Positions 17,037 to 36,764 of a DNA stretch of 55,343 bases are shown here, piece after piece. Made by a program: the position numbers and the translations under genes. The notes beneath the pieces were generated by a model. It did no database searches, was not told where the DNA came from, and worked only from the letters and a program-made list of their open reading frames with translations. The DNA comes from Veillonella sp. VA142. Its GTDB lineage: Bacteria > Bacillota > Negativicutes > Veillonellales > Veillonellaceae. The first letter of the stretch is position 1. Every line of letters begins with the position of its first letter. The stretch is from contig NZ_RQVN01000012.1 in the NCBI RefSeq assembly GCF_003992135.1, forward strand, positions 1 through 55,343, read 5' to 3'.

Positions 17037-17102
17037 TTCTTTTAGCCGTGTAATTATTGTCATAACATGCTATAATAAAGGGAAATCTCATATAATAAAA
17101 GA

Positions 17103-17162: not shown

Positions 17163-18221
17163 TTAGTCGAAAATTTGGCATATTTGGGTGCGAGCATTTT
17201 CTCTCATTTCATCCGAGTAGTGGATGTACGTTTTTATAACAGTATTTACTGTATCGCCTAACAAAGACGCAACTGTTTTAATGTCTACGCCGTTTGCTAG
17301 TAGTTTAGTTGCGTATGTGTGCCTAAAATCATGAGTCGTATGTTTGTTAATGTGGCGTTTTGTATATTCGTGTACAAGGGTAGGTGAATATATAGGAATA
17401 AGCCTATCGGTAGTACAACGTGCTTTATACTCCAACAAAACATCTGACAATGATGGCGGTATAGGGATTGTACGATAACTATTTTTTGTTTTTAGTGGTC
17501 CGAGTCCGTGCGTTCTATTTTCATTCAAACGTACCCATTGCTTATTAATGGTGATTGTCAGATTATCGAAATTGATGTTATCCCATGTTAAGCCTAACAA
17601 CTCACCAACACGCATGCCAGTATAATGCAATATTTTTACTGCTATAAAATAGTGTGAGGATGCATCTGCTGATTTGAAGTAATCAGATAATTCTTGATCC
17701 GATATAATTCTAATTCTTTTTCTTTTTCTTGCGTCTTTTTTTAAATTAATGACAACAGGATTATTCACCATTAAATTATACCGCTTTATTGCGTGCGTAA
17801 ACATCGTTTTAAGCATAGAGAATACATAATGCTTAGTGCTTTCCGACAGAGGCATCTCAGAGGCGATTTTATGGATTATTTGGGGTGTTATAGATTGCAA
17901 CTTCATATCATGGATCTGGTGTAGATGTTTTACATTATTATCATATGCCAATAACGTATTTACTCGTAGATTATTTTTTACATCGTGAAAGTATAGGCGA
18001 GCAAATTCGATGAACGTTATATCTGAAAATTCTTGACTATTAATGAACAGCAATTTTTCTTTGATGTCTTTCACTATCACATCGCCGTAATCTTTGGCTT
18101 GCCGTTTGGTAGCGAATCCTTGCTTGCTTTTTTGTCGCCATTTGCCGTATCTATCTTTGTAGCTAACGATAACTTGCCACCCTTTATCCTTTTGTCGTGT
18201 TGATATAGAATAACTAGCCAT
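17163..18221 (-). CDS. int: Phage tyrosine integrase
   Basis: 352 aa. N-terminal Arm-binding domain (1-60), SAM-like core-binding domain (about 65-155) and C-terminal catalytic domain with Arg204 (TGMRVGELLGL), Lys246 region (PLKTKNSYR), HxxR at 297-300 (HDFRHTYA) and nucleophile Tyr332 (VIKTYIHY). Catalyses site-specific integration and excision of the prophage. It is transcribed leftward, toward the host tmk. Start ATG 18221 has AAAGGAGC upstream on the minus strand. Confidence 0.95.
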   Translation of the reverse strand: MASYSISTRQKDKGWQVIVSYKDRYGKWRQKSKQGFATKRQAKDYGDVIVKDIKEKLLFINSQEFSDITFIEFARLYFHDVKNNLRVNTLLAYDNNVKHLHQIHDMKLQSITPQIIHKIASEMPLSESTKHYVFSMLKTMFTHAIKRYNLMVNNPVVINLKKDARKRKRIRIISDQELSDYFKSADASSHYFIAVKILHYTGMRVGELLGLTWDNINFDNLTITINKQWVRLNENRTHGLGPLKTKNSYRTIPIPPSLSDVLLEYKARCTTDRLIPIYSPTLVHEYTKRHINKHTTHDFRHTYATKLLANGVDIKTVASLLGDTVNTVIKTYIHYSDEMRENARTQICQIFD

Positions 18222-19092: not shown

Positions 19093-19740
19093 CTACAAAT
19101 CTCTTCGAACCTCTACTGCCTTACCCATAATCCTAACTGGTAAGGTCGCTATATCGTGATTGCTATAGAACATTCTAGGGAATGCCCTCACATTATCACC
19201 TACAATATCTATACCATCCGAGCGGTGGTATATGCGTTTGATGGTCGCCTCATTGCCTGCAATAGAAACGGCTGCGATTTCTCCATCTTCAACATCAGGT
19301 TGTTGCCTAATCACAACAATATCACTATCAAATAGGGTAGGCTCCATTGAGTCACCTTTGATACGTAGTGCGAAATATTCACCACGCATGGCTAGTGATT
19401 GCGAAATCTCTATCCATTCATCATAATCTGTGACTGCTGTATTTGGAATGCCAGCAACGATAGAACCTAATACAGGAATGCGAACACCGCCAGTAAGCGG
19501 AATAGCATAGTTTATTTCAGATTTTGTATCATTAGGGATTTCCTCCCTGCCGAGTAGGTAATCTGTAGTAACGTTGAATAACTTTGCTATCTGAGTAAGC
19601 ATTGTCGATGTTGGGACACGTTTATTCGTCTCCCATTGAGACACTGCATTTCTAGTGATGTTTAACTTTAACCCTAATTCATAGCCAGTCATATTGTGGC
19701 CAAGCCTTAATTCTTTTATACGTTGACCTATTGTACTCAT
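19093..19740 (-). CDS. CI-like repressor with S24 autocleavage domain
   Basis: 215 aa. HTH_3 domain at about 6-62 (IKELRLGHNMTGYELGLKLNITRNAVSQWE), linker with a likely cleavage site Ala96-Gly97 (GSIVAGIP), and a LexA/S24 peptidase domain with Ser131 (KGDSMEPT) and Lys168 (EATIKRIY). It should keep lytic promoters off and be inactivated by RecA-stimulated self-cleavage after DNA damage. AAGGAG precedes the start. It faces the operator cluster at 19766-19872. Confidence 0.95.
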   Translation of the reverse strand: MSTIGQRIKELRLGHNMTGYELGLKLNITRNAVSQWETNKRVPTSTMLTQIAKLFNVTTDYLLGREEIPNDTKSEINYAIPLTGGVRIPVLGSIVAGIPNTAVTDYDEWIEISQSLAMRGEYFALRIKGDSMEPTLFDSDIVVIRQQPDVEDGEIAAVSIAGNEATIKRIYHRSDGIDIVGDNVRAFPRMFYSNHDIATLPVRIMGKAVEVRRDL

Positions 19741-26615: not shown

Positions 26616-27395
26616 GTGAACACAGAACGTAAAATCAAGACAGAATTATATTGCGATAACTTTCAAAACTACAAACGGTATGGGATTCCAAAAGCACAGT
26701 TAGTAATTGCAGATATTCCCTATAATTTAGGTGATAATGCGTATGCGAGTAATCCGATGTGGTATAACGGCGGAGATAATAAAAATGGCGAAAGTAAATT
26801 AGCAGGCAAGGCATTTTTCAATACTGACCACAATTTCAATATTGCCGAGTACTTCCATTTCTGCAATCGGTTGTTGAAGAAAGAGCCGAAAGAAAGAAAA
26901 AAAGCACCTTGTATGATTGTATTTTGTAGCTTTCAACAGATTCCGATGATTATTGAATATGCCAAAAAACAAGGATTTAAAAACTACATTCCGTTATTCT
27001 TCATCAAAAATTATTCATCGCAAGTATTAAAGGCTAACATGCGACCAGTAGGGGCGACAGAATATGCATTGATACTCTACCGTGACAAATTGCCGAAGTT
27101 TAATAACAACAAGAAAATGATATTTGATTGGATGGAATGGAAACGAGATAAGAAGAAAGACGTGCCAAAAGTACACCCTACTCAAAAGCCTACAAATGTA
27201 ATTAAGCGATTGATTGAGTTATTTACAGACGAGGGCGATGTAGTTATAGATCCAGTAGCAGGGAGTGGGGTTACACTCCGATGTGCTAGAGAATTAGGGC
27301 GTAGCAGTTATGGGTTTGAAGTTTCCAAGGAATTTTACAATAAAGCAGTCAATGAGATGTTAGCCGTTAATGAGTGGCAAGAACCGTTGTTTTAA
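26616..27395 (+). CDS. Beta-class DNA methyltransferase (N6-adenine or N4-cytosine)
   Basis: 259 aa. Catalytic motif IV is DIPYNLG (33-39) and comes before the SAM motif IDPVAGSGVT (211-220), the permuted order of beta-class enzymes; HPTQKP (187-192) is also typical. DIPY replaces the usual DPPY, seen in some phage enzymes. Start GTG 26616 after GGAGGCG. No restriction partner is nearby, so it is an orphan modification enzyme, probably anti-restriction or timing-related. Target sequence unknown. Confidence 0.88.
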   Translation: MNTERKIKTELYCDNFQNYKRYGIPKAQLVIADIPYNLGDNAYASNPMWYNGGDNKNGESKLAGKAFFNTDHNFNIAEYFHFCNRLLKKEPKERKKAPCMIVFCSFQQIPMIIEYAKKQGFKNYIPLFFIKNYSSQVLKANMRPVGATEYALILYRDKLPKFNNNKKMIFDWMEWKRDKKKDVPKVHPTQKPTNVIKRLIELFTDEGDVVIDPVAGSGVTLRCARELGRSSYGFEVSKEFYNKAVNEMLAVNEWQEPLF

Positions 27396-30019: not shown

Positions 30020-30045
30020 ACCACCCTATCAAATGATGGGGTGGT
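30020..30045. repeat. Long hairpin between ssb and the ArpU-like gene
   Basis: ACCACCCTATCA (30020-30031) and TGATGGGGTGGT (30034-30045) form a near-perfect 12-bp stem with one G-U. No T-run, so not a typical terminator; could stabilise or regulate the mRNA, or be a protein binding site. Confidence 0.5.
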
Positions 30046-30076
30046 ATTCGTGCGTGTTAAGGTAAAGGGGATGTAC

Positions 30077-30550
30077 ATGGAATTAAGCAAAAAAGAACAA
30101 CGAGAATGGGCAAAGGCAGAATTAGGTAAATTGTGGGAGATACGAGAGGAAGGCAAATGGGCGAGTTATCAGATTAAAAAATTAGAACGAGAGATGGGAC
30201 CGAAAGAACTAAATGGATCTAGCCTAAGCGGAGAGGGTGGTGGAGGATTCCAAGCACCGACAATAGAACAACTAAATAAATTACAGGAATTATACGACCA
30301 ATTAGAAGAGTATAAACAAAGGTCGATAGAATTAGAGTTGCAGACATTGCGAATCATTGATAAAATTGATGACGGTATATTAAGAGTGATATTGAAACGA
30401 GTATACATTAGCGGGCAACGATTGAGACATATGTATAAAAGCATAACGAAATCGTATGATACTGTTAAGCAGTGGCATTCTGAGGCGTTGGTTCAATTTT
30501 ATGTGAAATCTCATGAAATTTCCCCCACAAATACACCTAAATACACCTAA
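30077..30550 (+). CDS. ArpU/sigma-70 region 4-like late regulator
   Basis: 157 aa. Coiled-coil N-terminus with a Gly-rich kink (GEGGGGFQ), then a C-terminal HTH resembling sigma region 4 (DDGILRVILKRVYISGQRLRHMYKSITKSYDTVKQW). Position at the end of the early operon is that of ArpU/RinA-like activators of late genes. AAAGGGG at 30064-30070 favours ATG 30077. Tandem repeats at its 3' end and after it may be its target. Family call by pattern only. Confidence 0.68.
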   Translation: MELSKKEQREWAKAELGKLWEIREEGKWASYQIKKLEREMGPKELNGSSLSGEGGGGFQAPTIEQLNKLQELYDQLEEYKQRSIELELQTLRIIDKIDDGILRVILKRVYISGQRLRHMYKSITKSYDTVKQWHSEALVQFYVKSHEISPTNTPKYT

Positions 30551-30570
30551 ATACACCTAAATACACCTAT
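30531..30570 (+). repeat. Four 10-bp direct repeats upstream of a late promoter
   Basis: ATACACCTAA three times and ATACACCTAT once, with no spacer, beginning inside the end of the ArpU-like gene. A 10-bp period puts every copy on the same helix face, as expected for an activator array. Confidence 0.7.
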
Positions 30571-31394: not shown

Positions 31395-31586
31395 TTGACA
31401 AAAATAGCATGTTGCAAGAAACAATGCTTGAACAATAAGCATGGCGTATGTACTGCTAGGGACATCGCATATGATGGTCGTTGTCAGACTTTCACAACGC
31501 CTAATGATAGCATGCGTGCAGATGTGCATATGGTACACCGTGTGCATGGAAAGATTAAATCGAAGAAAGGGCAGATATTACGATGA
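31395..31586 (+). CDS. DUF1540-like Cys-rich small protein
   Basis: 63 aa. The Cys pattern CCKKQC-x7-C-x10-C (ACCKKQCLNNKHGVCTARDIA...RCQTF) resembles DUF1540, a presumed metal-binding motif. Start is TTG 31395, with AAAGGTGGTGAGG upstream; the upstream ATG 31356 lies inside the hairpin and is rejected. Coupled to the next gene by ATGA. Confidence 0.65.
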   Translation: MTKIACCKKQCLNNKHGVCTARDIAYDGRCQTFTTPNDSMRADVHMVHRVHGKIKSKKGQILR

Positions 31587-32050
31587 ATATTGTAGAGTTA
31601 AGCATTCATGATCTAGTGCCGTATGAGAACAATCCACGGAATAATATTGAGGCTGTGGAGTATGTGGCTAATAGTATTGAAAAGTTCGGATTTAAAGTGC
31701 CAATCGTGGTAGATGCAAATAATGTGATTGTCGCAGGGCATACACGATATATGGCAAGCAAAAAGTTAGGACTGGAGACAGTGCCATGTATTGTGGCAGA
31801 CGATTTGACGGAAGAACAAATAAAAGCATTCCGTTTGGCTGACAATAAAGTTGGTGAAATTGCTACATGGGACTTAAATAAACTACAACTTGAATTAGAT
31901 TTTTTAGATTTTAATATGGAAGAGTTTGGTTTTATTAGTACTATGGAAGAGCCTGATATCACAGACTTTTTAGAAGACCATGAAAGTAAAACGAAAGAAC
32001 CTAATACTGTTGTTTGCCCTGAGTGTGGTCATGCGTTTACGGTGAAATAA
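31583..32050 (+). CDS. ParB/Srx-fold protein at the head of the preQ0 cassette
   Basis: 155 aa. ParB N-terminal domain: LVPYENNPRNN (11-21), the GHTRYMASKKLG box (about 52-63) and a following FRLADNKVGE. The C-terminus ends with CPECGHAF, half a zinc finger. No methylase domain is fused. Its stop overlaps the dpdA start (TAATG). In bacterial Dpd islands DpdB is a DndB/ParB-related ATPase needed together with DpdA, so this protein may be an accessory factor for base exchange; alternatively it is the ordinary phage ParB-like protein found near terminases. Confidence 0.78.
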   Translation: MNIVELSIHDLVPYENNPRNNIEAVEYVANSIEKFGFKVPIVVDANNVIVAGHTRYMASKKLGLETVPCIVADDLTEEQIKAFRLADNKVGEIATWDLNKLQLELDFLDFNMEEFGFISTMEEPDITDFLEDHESKTKEPNTVVCPECGHAFTVK

Positions 32051-32784
32051 TGAAAGTATTTTTAGCGAACGTCGAGCCTGATTTTATTATAGAAGAAAGC
32101 AAACCTAAATATTATCTTGAAAGCTATTACTACTTAAAGAAACCTATTCAACTTCAATTAATGAAAGAGGTTGATATGTTCCTGTTGGATAGTGGTGCTT
32201 TTACTTTTATAAATGCAAAAAAACACAAAGCATTTAATGTTGATGAGTATCTAAATAATTACATAGACTTCATAAATAAATATAATGTTCAATACTTCTT
32301 TGAACTAGATACGGATAGCATACACGGTATAGACAAAGTTCTTGAAATGAGAAAAAAACTAGAGGCTGGTACTGGAAAGCGTTGTATACCAGTATGGCAC
32401 AAATCAAGAGGAATTAATTGCTTTAAGAAATTGTGCAAAGAATATGACTATATAGCGATTGGGGGATTTGTTACAAAAGAAATTAGGGAACCTGAATTTG
32501 CTAAGGTTAAACAGCTGTTAGACTATGCCAGATATCACAATGTAAAAGTCCATGGCTTGGGGTTCACAAGTATGAAATATATAGATAAATTACCATTCTT
32601 TAGCGTTGATAGCACATCGTTTAAAAGTGGTCGGCGTTTCGGACAGGTACATTATTTTGATGGTAAGAAAATTATTTTAAAAAAAAGGCCTGATGGTAAA
32701 CGAGTTAAGGACTACAAGGCGGTAGATAAAATTAACTTACAGGGTTGGATCCAATTTCAAAAGTATGCAGATATACATCTATAA
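32050..32784 (+). CDS. dpdA: DpdA-type DNA 7-deazaguanine transglycosylase
   Basis: 244 aa, TGT-like TIM barrel. LLDSGAF (46-51 region, Asp47) corresponds to the DSGGFQ motif with the catalytic acid of tRNA-guanine transglycosylase; FELDTD (85-89), GGF (138-140), VHGLGF (167-172) and SVDSTSF with Asp187 (candidate nucleophile) follow in the TGT order. No C-terminal zinc site is present, as in phage DpdA. It would replace guanine by preQ0 in phage DNA. ATG 32050 is used, not the in-frame ATG 32023. Stands directly before queC-queD-queE-folE, which make its substrate. The DNA here is visibly more AT-rich than in flanking genes. Confidence 0.82.
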   Translation: MKVFLANVEPDFIIEESKPKYYLESYYYLKKPIQLQLMKEVDMFLLDSGAFTFINAKKHKAFNVDEYLNNYIDFINKYNVQYFFELDTDSIHGIDKVLEMRKKLEAGTGKRCIPVWHKSRGINCFKKLCKEYDYIAIGGFVTKEIREPEFAKVKQLLDYARYHNVKVHGLGFTSMKYIDKLPFFSVDSTSFKSGRRFGQVHYFDGKKIILKKRPDGKRVKDYKAVDKINLQGWIQFQKYADIHL

Positions 32785-32793
32785 GGAGGATAT

Positions 32794-33492
32794 ATGGATA
32801 AAGTTATAGTTTTATCGAGTGGTGGCGTTGATAGCACAACTGCTCTTGCATTGGCTGTAAAAGAATTTGGTAAAGATAATGTTTTGTCTTTGTCTTTTTT
32901 TTACGGGCAAAAACACGGAAAAGAATTAAGAGCTGCACAAAAAATCGCAAATTACTATGGGGTAAATCATAAAGTATTTGATATTAAACAATTTATGACC
33001 TATTCTAATTGTTCTCTTTTAGCTTGCTCTACAAAAGATGTTGAAGAGGGAAGTTATAACGAACAGTTAAAGAAAAACAATGGTAATATTCTAGAAACTT
33101 ATGTACCGTTTAGAAATGGCTTGTTATTATCTATTGCAACGACTATTGGAATGAGTTTGTCAGAAAATGAAGGTAAAGCTTGTATTTATTTGGGTAATCA
33201 TGCTGATGATGCCGCAGGAAATGCTTATGCTGATTGCTCTATGGAGTTTATTAAAGCAATGAATAAAGCAATTAAGATTGCTACTTATGGAAAAGTAGAA
33301 ATCAAAAGCCCATTTGTAAATTATAATAAATCGCAAATTGTCAAATTAGGGATAGAACTTAAAATACCGTACGAATTGACATGGAGTTGCTATAACGGCG
33401 AGGATATACCTTGCGGTAAATGTGGCACTTGCATCGATAGAATTAACGCTTTTAAAAGTAATGATGTTAAAGACCCAGCGATAAAGGAGTAA
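32794..33492 (+). CDS. queC: 7-cyano-7-deazaguanine synthase QueC
   Basis: 232 aa. PP-loop SSGGVDSTT (8-16), the VPFRNGLLLSIA motif (104-115), HADDA, and the zinc site Cys199, Cys207, Cys210, Cys213 (CYNGEDIPCGKCGTC). ATP-dependent conversion of CDG to preQ0. No Gat domain is fused, so it should stop at preQ0. Strong AAGGAGG. Confidence 0.95.
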   Translation: MDKVIVLSSGGVDSTTALALAVKEFGKDNVLSLSFFYGQKHGKELRAAQKIANYYGVNHKVFDIKQFMTYSNCSLLACSTKDVEEGSYNEQLKKNNGNILETYVPFRNGLLLSIATTIGMSLSENEGKACIYLGNHADDAAGNAYADCSMEFIKAMNKAIKIATYGKVEIKSPFVNYNKSQIVKLGIELKIPYELTWSCYNGEDIPCGKCGTCIDRINAFKSNDVKDPAIKE

Positions 33493-33494
33493 AA

Positions 33495-33830
33495 ATGTAT
33501 TACGTATCAAAAAGAATGGAGATTGCAGGATCTCATAAATTGAATTTGGATTATGAAAGCAAATGCCAAAATTTACATGGGCATAATTGGATCGTTACCG
33601 TATACCTAAAAGGTGAGTCATTAAATCATAACGGAATGTTGATGGATTTTACTCATATCAAGAAACGAATTCACGATGTACTAGACCACCAACATATAAA
33701 CGACATTGTGGAAGTAAACCCAACAGCAGAGAATATGTCTAAATGGATTTGCGATACATTAGGTGAAATGTGCTACAAGGTAGAAGTTCAAGAGTCAGAG
33801 GGGAATATAGCAACATATGAACGTGATTGA
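33495..33830 (+). CDS. queD: 6-carboxytetrahydropterin synthase QueD
   Basis: 111 aa, PTPS fold. Zinc ligands His14, His28, His30 (LHGHNW), catalytic Cys24 and the LDHQHIND segment (63-70). Makes 6-carboxytetrahydropterin from dihydroneopterin triphosphate. Starts 3 nt after queC and overlaps queE by 14 nt. Confidence 0.95.
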   Translation: MYYVSKRMEIAGSHKLNLDYESKCQNLHGHNWIVTVYLKGESLNHNGMLMDFTHIKKRIHDVLDHQHINDIVEVNPTAENMSKWICDTLGEMCYKVEVQESEGNIATYERD

Positions 33831-34455
33831 GATATTTAGCTCCATTGAGGGTGAAGGAACAAGACAAGGATATTTGTGTACATTTGTAAGACTATACGGA
33901 TGTAACCTGCGTTGCTCGTATTGTGATACTCCATATAGCTATGAGGGCGGAGAGTATACAGTTATTGATGTAAAAGAAGTAGCAGAAACAGTACGAGCAA
34001 TTGGTAACAAGTATGTAACAATCACAGGTGGAGAGCCATTATTGCAAGAATCACAAGTTATTGAGTTAATAAAGCTGTTAGGTGAAGATTATGAGTTTAA
34101 TATTGAAACCAATGGTAGTGTAATTCCTACATACAGAGCTGAAAACATATTTTATACCGTAGATTATAAATGCCCTACATCTAATGAAGAAACAAAGATG
34201 AAAGAAGAGGCGTTTTTAAATCTACACAAGAATGATGTAGTAAAGTTCGTTGTAGGTAGCATTGAGGACTTGCAACGTACATATGAATTTATTAAAACTC
34301 ACGATATACAAGCTCATATATACCTATCTCCTAGCTACCAAGAAATAACAGCAAGAGAGATTGTAGAGTTTATGAAAGATAACAACATGCAGGATGTACG
34401 AGTACAATTACAGATCCATAAGTATATATGGGATGTAAACGAAAGAGGGGTATAA
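33817..34455 (+). CDS. queE: 7-carboxy-7-deazaguanine synthase QueE (radical SAM)
   Basis: 212 aa. SSIEGEGTRQG then CxxxCxxC at Cys29, Cys33, Cys36 (GCNLRCSYCDT) for the 4Fe-4S cluster, and TGGEPLLQ (70-77). Converts carboxytetrahydropterin to CDG. folE begins at the very next base after its stop. Confidence 0.95.
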   Translation: MNVIEIFSSIEGEGTRQGYLCTFVRLYGCNLRCSYCDTPYSYEGGEYTVIDVKEVAETVRAIGNKYVTITGGEPLLQESQVIELIKLLGEDYEFNIETNGSVIPTYRAENIFYTVDYKCPTSNEETKMKEEAFLNLHKNDVVKFVVGSIEDLQRTYEFIKTHDIQAHIYLSPSYQEITAREIVEFMKDNNMQDVRVQLQIHKYIWDVNERGV

Positions 34456-35010
34456 ATGGATAAGAACAAAGTAGAGCGGGCGGTAAAAGACTTACTTATT
34501 GGCCTAGGTGCTGATATTCATTCAGAGGGACTCAAAGATACTCCAATGAGAGTAGCTAAGATGTATGGCGAAGTGTTAGAGGGAATGAAATATTCAAATG
34601 AAGAAATAGCGAAGATGTTTGGTAAATCGTTTGAAGTGGATACAAACGGACTGGTAGCAGTAAAAGGGATCCAGTCTTTTTCTTACTGTGAACATCACTT
34701 AGCATTAATGTATGACATGACTATTGATATTGGTTATATTCCTAATGGTAAAGTGTTAGGCTTATCAAAGTTACCAAGAATTGCGGAAATGTGCTGTAAG
34801 CGGTTACAGCTACAGGAACGAATTGGCGAAGATATTGCGGAGGTTATTAAATTAGCAACAGGAACAAATGATGTAATTGTTGTGATTAAAGCAAACCACT
34901 CATGTATGACTAGCCGAGGCATTAAAGCGAGAGAAAGCAAAACAACAACGATTACAAAATATGGAAAGTTCAATCAAGCTGATACATTTAATGAGTTCAT
35001 GAGAGGTTGA
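34456..35010 (+). CDS. folE: GTP cyclohydrolase I
   Basis: 184 aa, type IA. Zinc ligands Cys78, His81 (YCEHHL) and Cys150 (HSCMTSRGI), plus LGLSKLPRIAE and QERIGEDIAE. Produces dihydroneopterin triphosphate from GTP, the entry step to preQ0. A phage copy frees the pathway from host pterin supply. The terminase small subunit starts 1 nt after its stop. Confidence 0.95.
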   Translation: MDKNKVERAVKDLLIGLGADIHSEGLKDTPMRVAKMYGEVLEGMKYSNEEIAKMFGKSFEVDTNGLVAVKGIQSFSYCEHHLALMYDMTIDIGYIPNGKVLGLSKLPRIAEMCCKRLQLQERIGEDIAEVIKLATGTNDVIVVIKANHSCMTSRGIKARESKTTTITKYGKFNQADTFNEFMRG

Positions 35011-35011
35011 T

Positions 35012-35383
35012 ATGGCAAGAACAGGGAGACCTACAATTAAAATTGATAAAGATAACTTTGAAAAGTTATGCGGATTGCAGTGTACCCTTGTAGAGATTGC
35101 TGGTTTCTTCAATTGTAGCGAGGATACTATTCAAAGATGGTGCAAGCGAACTTATAAAATGACTTTTGCGGAGACATATAAAACGTACTCACAACAAGGC
35201 AAAATTGCACTACGCCGTTACCAAATGAAGTTAGCGGAGAAAAGTGCCGCCATGGCGATATTCTTAGGTAAACAGCTATTAAGCCAACGAGATTATAGCG
35301 AGGTCGAGGTAAAGGCTGACATCAACAACCCGTTTGATGGGGTGACTACCGAGGACATTAAGAAGTTGATAGGCGATGAATAA
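35012..35383 (+). CDS. terS: Terminase small subunit
   Basis: 123 aa. N-terminal HTH (LCGLQCTLVEIAGFFNCSEDTIQRWCKRTY), then a helical oligomerisation segment (LRRYQMKLAEKSAAMAIFLGKQLL). Recognises the packaging site. Overlaps terL by 8 nt. Confidence 0.85.
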   Translation: MARTGRPTIKIDKDNFEKLCGLQCTLVEIAGFFNCSEDTIQRWCKRTYKMTFAETYKTYSQQGKIALRRYQMKLAEKSAAMAIFLGKQLLSQRDYSEVEVKADINNPFDGVTTEDIKKLIGDE

Positions 35384-36764
35384 GGCGAATATATTACATC
35401 AAGCACGTTTAGAATTAGCTAGACGTGATTTCTTTTATTTCTGCAACCTTATGGCAGGCGACTTTTACAAAAAAGATAGACAGTACCTTGTGGATCTATG
35501 CCACGAGTTACAACAGTTCTATGAAGATAAGCAAGCTAAGGTATTAATCATGAATATGCCTCCCCGTCATGGAAAAAGTCGGAGTGCTCAAATGCTAGTC
35601 AAGTGGATACTGGGAACACATCCACACGAAAAGATTATGACAGGAAGTTATAACACCACACTATCGACAACATTTGCGAAGAACGTCAGAAATGACATTC
35701 AGATGATTAAGGCGGACAAAGATGTAATCGTATATAGTGATATATTCCCTAATACACGCATTAAACGTGGTGATGGCAGTATGGACATGTGGAGCCTAGA
35801 GGGCGGTTATAATAGTTACCTCGCAACATCTCCGAGTGGTACTGCTACAGGGTTCGGTGCTAGTCTGCTGATACTAGATGACATCATAAAGAATGCGGAA
35901 GAGGCTTATAACGAGAACGTAAAGGCTAAGCATTGGGATTGGTTCACTAACACCATGCTTTCACGGTTAGAAGAGGGCGGTAAAATCATTATAATCATGA
36001 CACGATGGGCCAGTGATGACTTAGCAGGGCGAGCGATAGAACACTTTGGGGAACGTGCCAAGGTGATTACGATGAAAGCCTTGCAAGACGATGGCACGAT
36101 GTTATGCGATGAAGTATTAAGCCATGATTCATATCGTGATAAGGTATCGGCTATGGGTGAAGATATAGCCAGTGCGAACTATCAGCAAATACCAATTGAC
36201 CTCAAAGGGTGCTTGTATAGTGGGTTTAAAACCTACGATACATTACCACCATTTGAGAGCATTAAAAGCTATACGGATACCGCAGACCAAGGAGCGGATT
36301 ACCTATGCAGTATTACCTATGGCGTATATAAGAACGAGGCATATATACTTGATGTGATTTATACGAAAGAATCGATGGAGATTACCGAGCCACAAGTGGC
36401 AAGGACAATATATGAGTACAATGTGGCGATTGCTGATATAGAAAGTAATAACGGTGGCCGTGGATTTGTTCGGAGTGTAAGGCGAATTTTAGAAGAAGTT
36501 TACAACAGCAACCGTACAAAGATAGTCGCTTTCCATCAATCTAAGAACAAGGAAAGCCGTATTCTATCACAGGCAACATGGGTTATGGATCACATCTATA
36601 TGCCTATGGATTGGCAGGAACGATGGAAAGACTTTGCCAAGGCAATACTACGGTATCAACGAGAGGGCAAGAACGAACATGATGACGCACCAGACGCATT
36701 GACAGGGGTTGCTGAGAAAATCAACGCCCCTACATTGCGTAGTGGTCGAGTTAACTTATATTAA
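35376..36764 (+). CDS. terL: Terminase large subunit
   Basis: 462 aa. ATPase with Walker A MPPRHGKSRSA (61-71) and Walker B LLILDDI (164-170); RNase H-like nuclease with Asp residues in YTDTADQG (299-306), IADIESNNGG (352-361) and HDDAPDALTG near the C-terminus. Packages the genome into the prohead. Confidence 0.95.
   Translation: MNKANILHQARLELARRDFFYFCNLMAGDFYKKDRQYLVDLCHELQQFYEDKQAKVLIMNMPPRHGKSRSAQMLVKWILGTHPHEKIMTGSYNTTLSTTFAKNVRNDIQMIKADKDVIVYSDIFPNTRIKRGDGSMDMWSLEGGYNSYLATSPSGTATGFGASLLILDDIIKNAEEAYNENVKAKHWDWFTNTMLSRLEEGGKIIIIMTRWASDDLAGRAIEHFGERAKVITMKALQDDGTMLCDEVLSHDSYRDKVSAMGEDIASANYQQIPIDLKGCLYSGFKTYDTLPPFESIKSYTDTADQGADYLCSITYGVYKNEAYILDVIYTKESMEITEPQVARTIYEYNVAIADIESNNGGRGFVRSVRRILEEVYNSNRTKIVAFHQSKNKESRILSQATWVMDHIYMPMDWQERWKDFAKAILRYQREGKNEHDDAPDALTGVAEKINAPTLRSGRVNLY

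What the first reader, a model, noticed from the sequence alone, without database searches (positions are those of the whole stretch)
32050..35010. Complete preQ0 synthesis and DNA-insertion cassette in a temperate phage
A DpdA-type transglycosylase (TGT motifs DSGAF, GGF, VDS) is followed without gaps by QueC, QueD, QueE and FolE, each with its catalytic and metal residues. Together they take GTP to preQ0 and put it into DNA. Known 7-deazaguanine phages are mostly lytic; an integrated prophage of an anaerobic Negativicute carrying the full set is unusual and implies that modified DNA is made on induction to evade host restriction.
Basis: partly seen in the sequence, partly recalled or inferred. 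Interest (0 to 1): 0.92.

Follow-up and report, generated by a model that had tools for sequence, protein, structure and literature searches.

The report
Prophage cassette for modified guanine DNA
A dormant virus in a bacterial chromosome carries genes that should make an altered guanine and swap it into the virus's DNA; the set is real but not unique, and a neglected gene beside it (a ParB-like protein) looks like the regular partner of the swapping enzyme while the genes that supply the altered base come and go.

Summary
The cassette is real: DpdA-type transglycosylase, QueC, QueD, QueE and FolE, contiguous at 32050-35010, just before the terminase. The prophage is integrated between tmk and holB with a 12-bp core on both sides. 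It is not unusual: mycobacteriophage CRB2 has the same gene order, its relative Rosebush carries dPreQ0 in print, and long contigs of four other species hold full sets. In related loci with at least 400 nt upstream it lies within 7 kb of dpdA in 71 of 71 IMG/VR and 34 of 35 genome loci, usually touching it. Supply varies: of 93 loci, 29 have full synthesis without an importer, 58 an importer without full synthesis, 3 both, 3 neither. A sister-genus prophage keeps ParB, QueD, QueE and FolE but has another DpdA, a QueD-like extra gene and no QueC, as in the 33 loci of that type, which predicts a different base. Best reading: on induction the phage makes preQ0 and exchanges it into its DNA, helped by the ParB-like protein. 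No chemistry was tested.

The parts
31583..32050 (+). ParB-like gene (155 aa), candidate partner of DpdA, C-terminal CxxC
   Evidence: PF02195 40.2 bits vs 26.3; phrog_620 4.1e-56; model pLDDT 89.7, Z 14.8 to ParB 7bnr; conserved linkage
32050..32784 (+). dpdA, TGT-like transglycosylase (244 aa)
   Evidence: phrog_887 2.2e-54; model and fold matches; D47 and D187 invariant in 60 of 60
32794..33492 (+). queC, preQ0 synthase
   Evidence: TIGR00364 over cut-off; PDB QueC 2pg3 1.5e-20
33495..33830 (+). queD, 6-carboxytetrahydropterin synthase
   Evidence: TIGR03367 over cut-off; PDB matches
33817..34455 (+). queE, radical SAM 7-carboxy-7-deazaguanine synthase
   Evidence: TIGR03963 245.6 bits, just under its cut-off 260.1; PDB QueE 5tgs 9.3e-12
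34456..35010 (+). folE, GTP cyclohydrolase I
   Evidence: NF006826 over cut-off; PDB 1wm9 4.3e-32
35012..36764 (+). terminase small subunit (35012-35383) and large subunit (35376-36764), directly after the cassette
   Evidence: phrog_309 1.9e-6 and phrog_30251 5.3e-221
17071..17082 (.). attL core TATAATAAAGGG; the matching attR core is on contig C1:2027-2038, outside the window
17163..18221 (-). integrase
   Evidence: PF00589 8.1e-18; phrog_1 1.1e-66
19093..19740 (-). CI/S24-type repressor
   Evidence: PF00717 and HTH_3; phrog_4 4.2e-41
30041..30550 (+). candidate late transcription regulator
   Evidence: phrog_36 1.4e-5, weak

Best explanation
A temperate tailed prophage carries a cassette that modifies its own DNA. 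FolE, QueD, QueE and QueC turn GTP into preQ0 (7-cyano-7-deazaguanine), and DpdA exchanges guanine bases in DNA for preQ0 by a TGT-like reaction. The ParB-like protein encoded just before and touching dpdA is the partner of DpdA, most likely a nucleotide-dependent DNA-binding or loading subunit that works like bacterial DpdB. The cassette lies between a candidate late regulator and the terminase, so it should be silent in the lysogen and act after induction, before packaging. Shown here: gene identities, predicted folds, integration, conserved linkage. Inferred: product, partner role, timing, benefit against restriction.
For: Family and fold evidence. Mycobacterium phage CRB2 has the same order ParB-DpdA-QueC-QueD-QueE-FolE-terS-terL. 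Rosebush, which encodes DpdA and the four synthesis enzymes, carries dPreQ0 at about 28% of G (PMC6884629; that Rosebush and CRB2 are close kin is recalled). ParB linkage: immediately upstream in 54 of 71 IMG/VR and 33 of 35 genome loci with at least 400 nt upstream; within 7 kb on either strand in 71 of 71 and 34 of 35. In a second DpdA type ParB is present in 29 of 33 loci, and the 4 others have under 400 nt upstream. DpdB is described as a ParB-like ATPase that acts with DpdA (PMC12839542, passage), and the CRB2 paper suggests that the upstream ORF is a dpdB homologue (PMC6392294, passage). The only QueF match in the genome is on another contig, C15, and the phage QueC shows no extra amidotransferase domain in Pfam, so nothing seen would convert preQ0 further.
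Against: The NCBIfam DpdB model finds nothing in this genome, so orthology with DpdB is not supported. CAjan carries dPreQ0 without a ParB in the 6.5 kb read around dpdA. Related ParB domains are fused to methyltransferases, so the role may be generic. The host has its own QueC, TGT and QueF, so a host-made base such as preQ1 could be inserted instead. Promoter-like and terminator-like sites are no more frequent than in shuffles. ArcS and other preQ0-modifying enzymes were not searched for across the phage.
Confidence: 0.7

Rival explanations
1. DNA is modified, but the base is not preQ0: DpdA takes preQ1 or another base from the host pathway.
For: The host has QueF and TGT; Streptococcus phage Dp-1, which encodes a QueF-type protein, has dPreQ1 (PMC6884629).
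Against: The cassette ends at preQ0 and has no QueF of its own (the genome's one QueF match is on contig C15); Rosebush and CAjan, with the minimal set, have dPreQ0.
Confidence: 0.12
2. The ParB-like gene has nothing to do with DpdA; it is a generic DNA-binding or regulatory gene that sits in the pre-terminase region.
For: Related ParB domains are common in phages, often fused to methyltransferases or stand-alone near the terminase; CAjan-type phages do without.
Against: Linkage in almost all loci of two DpdA types; Cellulophaga phage phi38:2 has ParB directly after dpdA and away from a terminase in the stretch read; ParB is kept where DpdA has been exchanged.
Confidence: 0.25
3. The genes mainly raise queuosine in host tRNA (metabolic boost) and DNA stays unmodified.
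For: PMC6884629 proposes this for phages with synthesis genes but no DpdA; two phages with a lone dpdA, Orion and 7-11, show no or almost no modification.
Against: DpdA is present and conserved with its two aspartates; the host already has QueC, TGT and QueF.
Confidence: 0.07
4. The prophage is decayed and the cassette is not used.
For: No induction data; the prophage is split over two contigs, so the junction between them was not read.
Against: All cassette ORFs are open; integrase, repressor, terminase, head, tail and endolysin genes are present.
Confidence: 0.1

Closest known systems
Mycobacterium phages CRB2 and Rosebush
   Same: CRB2 has the same gene order, directly before the terminase; Rosebush DNA carries dPreQ0 (PMC6884629)
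   Different: CRB2 DpdA is distant (34.6% over 31% of the query); here the cassette is in an integrated prophage. The lifestyle of CRB2 was not examined.
Arthrobacter phage Sonali
   Same: ParB-DpdA-QueC-QueD-QueE-FolE in the same order
   Different: DpdA 32.7% identical over 66% of the query; no terminase follows in the stretch read
Fusobacterium phage phiFN37
   Same: ParB-like gene overlapping dpdA; integrase nearby
   Different: A queuosine precursor transporter instead of the synthesis genes
Escherichia phage CAjan (Queuovirinae)
   Same: DpdA with preQ0 synthesis genes; dPreQ0 and protection from restriction shown in PMC6884629
   Different: No ParB beside dpdA; dpdA is near the DNA polymerase genes
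Bacterial Dpd system (DpdA, DpdB)
   Same: TGT-like DpdA plus a ParB-like protein (PMC12839542)
   Different: Bacterial DpdA model far under cut-off and DpdB model without a match; DpdC and the restriction genes were not sought
ParB-methyltransferase fusions of Streptococcus, Lactobacillus and Staphylococcus phages
   Same: Related ParB domain, also near the terminase
   Different: Fused to a DNA methyltransferase instead of paired with DpdA

Membership tests
Phage DpdA | TGT-like barrel fold | tested here: met
   AF2 pLDDT 93.6; Foldseek best match TGT 7a4k E 7.1e-6; Z 15.7, rmsd 3.6, 234 aligned to T. maritima TGT 2ash
Phage DpdA | two catalytic aspartates (TGT D102 and D280; numbers recalled) | tested here: inconclusive
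   D47 (DSGAF) and D187 (VDS) are invariant in 60 of 60, but their equivalence to the TGT residues was not checked by superposition
Phage DpdA | match to the phage family | tested here: met
   phrog_887 E 2.2e-54
Bacterial DpdA (NF041059) | score over the equivalog cut-off | tested here: not met
   27.7 bits vs 200
DpdB (NF041060) | match to the DpdB model | tested here: not met
   no match at E <= 0.001 in G000, G013 or G349
DpdB (NF041060) | ATPase acting with DpdA | not testable with these tools
   biochemistry needed
ParB/Srx superfamily | ParB_N domain and fold | tested here: met
   PF02195 40.2 bits vs 26.3; Z 14.8, rmsd 2.3, 119 aligned to 7bnr
Chromosome-partition ParB | parS-binding HTH and C-terminal dimer domain | tested here: inconclusive
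   155 aa; sequence profiles match the N domain only, although the structural match runs to about residue 123
preQ0 pathway | FolE, QueD, QueE and QueC all present | tested here: met
   QueC, QueD and FolE (NF006826) over curated cut-offs, QueE just under; PDB matches
dPreQ0 phages | dPreQ0 in virion DNA | not testable with these tools
   LC-MS needed
Temperate prophage | integrase, repressor and attachment core on both sides | tested here: met
Temperate prophage | inducible, forms virions | not testable with these tools
   induction experiment needed
Dpd restriction-modification system | DpdC and restriction genes dpdD to dpdK | not tested
   only the DpdA and DpdB models were searched

The most novel reading that the evidence does not exclude
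The ParB-like protein is the constant core of an exchangeable DNA-modification module of phages: it pairs with DpdA, and in fused form its relatives pair with methyltransferases, as the nucleotide-dependent subunit that brings the enzyme to DNA. Around a fixed ParB-DpdA pair phages swap supply (four synthesis genes, a Vut_1/YhhQ-type or QueT importer, or importer plus QueC) and product: where QueC is missing and a QueD-like extra gene is present, another DpdA type is used and a base other than preQ0 (carboxy- or unsubstituted 7-deazaguanine) is inserted.
Probability: 0.35. Interest if true: 0.72.

Novelty: new member of a known kind. Interest (0 to 1): 0.47.

Why it matters
The cassette itself is ordinary in kind. 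What it opens is whether phage DpdA needs a partner: a ParB-like gene is nearly always linked to this DpdA type. Two prophages of one bacterial family share ParB, QueD, QueE and FolE but differ in DpdA and QueC, a natural experiment on what decides the inserted base. The alternation between making and importing the precursor gives a testable view of how phages obtain it; PMC6884629 saw no correlation of YhhQ with any group of phages (passage read).

Tried and rejected
Rejected: 'temperate carriage is unusual'. Rejected: chance ORFs or a non-TGT fold. Led nowhere: neither the DpdA sequence nor a profile of 60 relatives finds a TGT among PDB sequences; only the fold does. Pfam gives a sub-cut-off RepB_C match for DpdA, taken as chance. 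In the window and 4 related loci Rfam at gathering score finds only three tRNAs, in L098, so no known riboswitch there. Promoter and terminator scans are no better than shuffles. PADLOC gives a weak DpdA match, and for the ParB-like protein methyltransferase models.

Results against my reading: 17 of 71 IMG/VR loci have ParB within 7 kb but not immediately upstream. Among 18 phage records read, ParB is next to dpdA in 6 only: phiFN37, MT835752, Sonali, CRB2, phi38:2 (there downstream) and Cracklewink (one small ORF between); the Klebsiella phage record has an annotated parB further upstream that my profile did not find. The synthesis/import contrast (Fisher p 2e-17) ignores kinship; by independent pairs on supported branches it is 5 pairs, mean 3.6 opposite, 0 same, median p 0.125. 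The ParB tree has few columns and does not resolve the partner history. The scans started from a four-member alignment whose members all have ParB, and only the best 80 of 350 IMG/VR relatives were returned, so the linkage counts hold for this DpdA type, not for DpdA in general. L016, the window's own provirus, was dropped from all counts; in the second type L148 and L160 are probably one provirus (100% identity) but both are counted. Importer labels come from profiles made here; only one example of each was checked in Pfam.

Literature: of PMC6884629 I read part 2 of the Results, the Discussion and passages; of PMC6392294, PMC12839542, PMC10893344 and PMC6722419 passages only; of PMC11130926 and PMC5372724 the start of the abstract in a listing. 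Three Dpd papers (PMC10164549, PMC6207457, PMC4801273) are not held. A 2023 paper on further phage 7-deazaguanines, with names such as DpdA3 and a decarboxylase DpdL, is recalled; it is not among the 15 of 66 papers listed, and I do not rely on it. That ParB lies beside dpdA in mycobacteriophage CRB2 is already in print; my whole-word search for DpdA with ParB found 3 papers, all of which I looked into.

Full report
OBSERVATION. The window holds five contiguous genes at 32050-35010: a 244-aa DpdA-type protein, QueC, QueD, QueE and FolE, with gaps of 0-9 nt and one 14-nt overlap, followed after 1 nt by the terminase small subunit. DpdA matches phrog_887 at 2.2e-54. QueC, QueD and FolE pass curated NCBIfam cut-offs (FolE passes NF006826 but not TIGR00063) and QueE is slightly under its own; each of the four matches solved enzymes of its name. 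DpdA is far under the cut-off of the bacterial DpdA model (27.7 of 200 bits), so it is of the phage kind. A model built from the window protein and 59 relatives has mean pLDDT 93.6 and pTM 0.91. Its best PDB matches are tRNA-guanine transglycosylases, with VIA Z 15.7, rmsd 3.6 over 234 residues for 2ash. D47 and D187 are invariant in all 60.

PROPHAGE. The integrase (17163-18221) and a CI/S24-type repressor (19093-19740) lie at the left end. All five congeners searched match the region after tmk; in the three whose sequence I read, homology ends at window 17082-17091, and TATAATAAAGGG runs straight into the leader of holB. In this genome the core lies at window 17071-17082 and again on contig C1 at 2027-2038, 26 bases before the holB start at 2065. 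The prophage is therefore integrated and split over two contigs: at least 40.3 kb, with its endolysin on C1; the stretch between the contig ends was not read. IMG/VR already holds the part in this window as a 38,122-base provirus.

A MISSED PART. Immediately before dpdA lies a 155-aa ParB-like gene (31583-32050) that overlaps it by one base. It has a ParB_N domain (PF02195) and a C-terminal CxxC. Its model (pLDDT 89.7) matches ParB proteins bound to CTP analogue or CDP (Z 14.8 and 14.7), and also sulfiredoxin and a free serine kinase at lower Z. Scans with a four-member DpdA alignment found 350 relatives in IMG/VR (best 80 returned) and 38 in the genome collection. Of the 79 IMG/VR loci left after dropping the window's own provirus, 71 have at least 400 nt upstream of dpdA: a ParB-like ORF lies within 7 kb (either strand) in 71 and immediately upstream (gap -150 to +150) in 54. 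Of 38 genome loci 35 have that much upstream: 34 and 33. The commonest overlap is 4 nt. Of 111 ParB-like ORFs within 1.1 kb upstream, 77 have CxxC in the last 25 residues.

SUPPLY VARIES. Among 93 of these loci with at least 3.5 kb downstream, 29 have queC, queD, queE and folE and no importer, 3 have the full set and an importer, 30 have a Vut_1-type importer only, 19 that importer plus QueC, 9 a QueT importer only, and 3 a partial synthesis set without importer (one example of each family confirmed). COG1738 (YhhQ) and QueT are the two known families that salvage queuosine precursors (PMC11130926, abstract in the listing). On a DpdA tree of 97 rows, synthesis versus import needs at least 10 changes. 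Fisher p is 2e-17 without regard to kinship, but the kinship-aware test has only 5 supported pairs (mean 3.6 opposite, 0 same, p 0.125), so the alternation is suggestive, not proven.

PRODUCT MAY VARY TOO. Genome G013, of another genus of the same bacterial family, carries ParB (57% identical), QueD (84%), QueE (54%) and FolE (62%), but another DpdA (27%) and no QueC match in the 19 kb read. A scan with that DpdA gave 32 IMG/VR loci. With L148 (33 loci, two of them probably the same provirus), ParB is found in 29 (the other 4 have under 400 nt upstream), a QueD-like extra gene in 32, QueD in 33, QueE in 32, FolE in 31 (the misses lie near contig ends) and QueC in 0 within 4.5 kb. The extra gene aligns with QueD by profile comparison (probability 90, E 1.6e-6 for a single comparison), keeps a histidine cluster and lacks a conserved cysteine just before it. 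Without QueC the pathway stops at 7-carboxy-7-deazaguanine (pathway knowledge), so that type should insert this base or a product of it. Mycobacterium phage Cracklewink likewise has no QueC in the stretch read and has ParB one small ORF upstream of DpdA. In the window's type, QueC is present in 32 of the 34 loci that have queD, queE and folE; L018 and L126 are the exceptions.

KNOWN RELATIVES. CRB2 has exactly the window's order, terminase included, and its authors suggested that the upstream ORF is a dpdB homologue (PMC6392294, passage). Rosebush DNA carries dPreQ0 at about 28% of G (PMC6884629). Arthrobacter phage Sonali has the same ParB-to-FolE order. Of 18 phage records read here, 6 have ParB next to dpdA (with 32, 28, 98, 128, 134; in the last it is downstream); the 12 others do not, CAjan and HK106 among them (profile checks). 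Bacterial DpdB is described as a ParB-like ATPase working with DpdA (PMC12839542, passage), but the DpdB model finds nothing in this genome: the protein may work like DpdB but is not filed as DpdB. The nearest ParB relatives in phage records are often methyltransferase fusions; the four fusions that I read lie near the terminase.

IS TEMPERATE CARRIAGE UNUSUAL? No. HK106 and SfI carry a lone dpdA beside xis and int, and phiFN37 has an integrase 6.4 kb from dpdA. Contigs of 138 kb to 1.3 Mb of Staphylococcus intermedius, Phocaeicola plebeius, Alistipes senegalensis and a Muribaculaceae carry the full set with ParB and a terL (the last two also have an importer); integrases were not looked for in these four.

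MECHANISM. Most likely the phage makes preQ0 from GTP and DpdA exchanges it for guanine in DNA, helped by the ParB-like protein. The position between a weakly matched transcriptional regulator and the terminase suggests expression after induction, before packaging; no promoter evidence beyond chance supports this. The host has QueC, TGT and QueF of its own (host QueC 53% identical to the phage's), so the phage genes would raise supply rather than create it. Benefit against restriction is inferred from CAjan, where loss of dpdA removes modification and protection (PMC6884629). No chemistry was tested here.

Noticed in passing
window 26616-27395: A phage N6/N4 DNA methyltransferase (PF01555, 2.1e-32) sits in the early region, so the prophage may carry two kinds of DNA modification.
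   Followed up: no
window 30540-30569: Three head-to-tail copies of AATACACCTA at the end of and just after the candidate late regulator; possible operator.
   Followed up: no
L148 6202-9461 (G013); also L160, L161: Sister-genus prophage cassette ParB - QueD-like gene - variant DpdA - QueD - QueE - FolE; QueC was found in none of the 33 loci of this type.
   Followed up: partly
L098, L024, L099, L104, L102, L058, L088: A SAM methyltransferase goes with dpdA and a QueT importer in these 7 of the 9 loci that have this methyltransferase.
   Followed up: no
L080 2017-2439; also L031, L040, L115, L133: A DUF6884 protein (PF21818 1.5e-41, weaker match to the YaaA family) is encoded close to dpdA.
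   Followed up: no
L134 1015-2709 and 3064-4185: A bacterial DpdA over its cut-off is followed by an ORF that reads like a ParB protein (by eye), although the DpdB model finds nothing in that genome.
   Followed up: no
L116, L130: A second dpdA-like ORF follows the first within the cassette (Bacteroidota loci).
   Followed up: no
L128: The ParB-DpdA-importer arrangement on a contig binned as Archaeoglobus; archaeal host or binning error not settled.
   Followed up: no
L025, L027, L097 and 16 more loci: Nineteen loci have a Vut_1-type importer plus QueC alone, which would make sense if 7-carboxy-7-deazaguanine, the QueC substrate, is imported or taken from the host.
   Followed up: no
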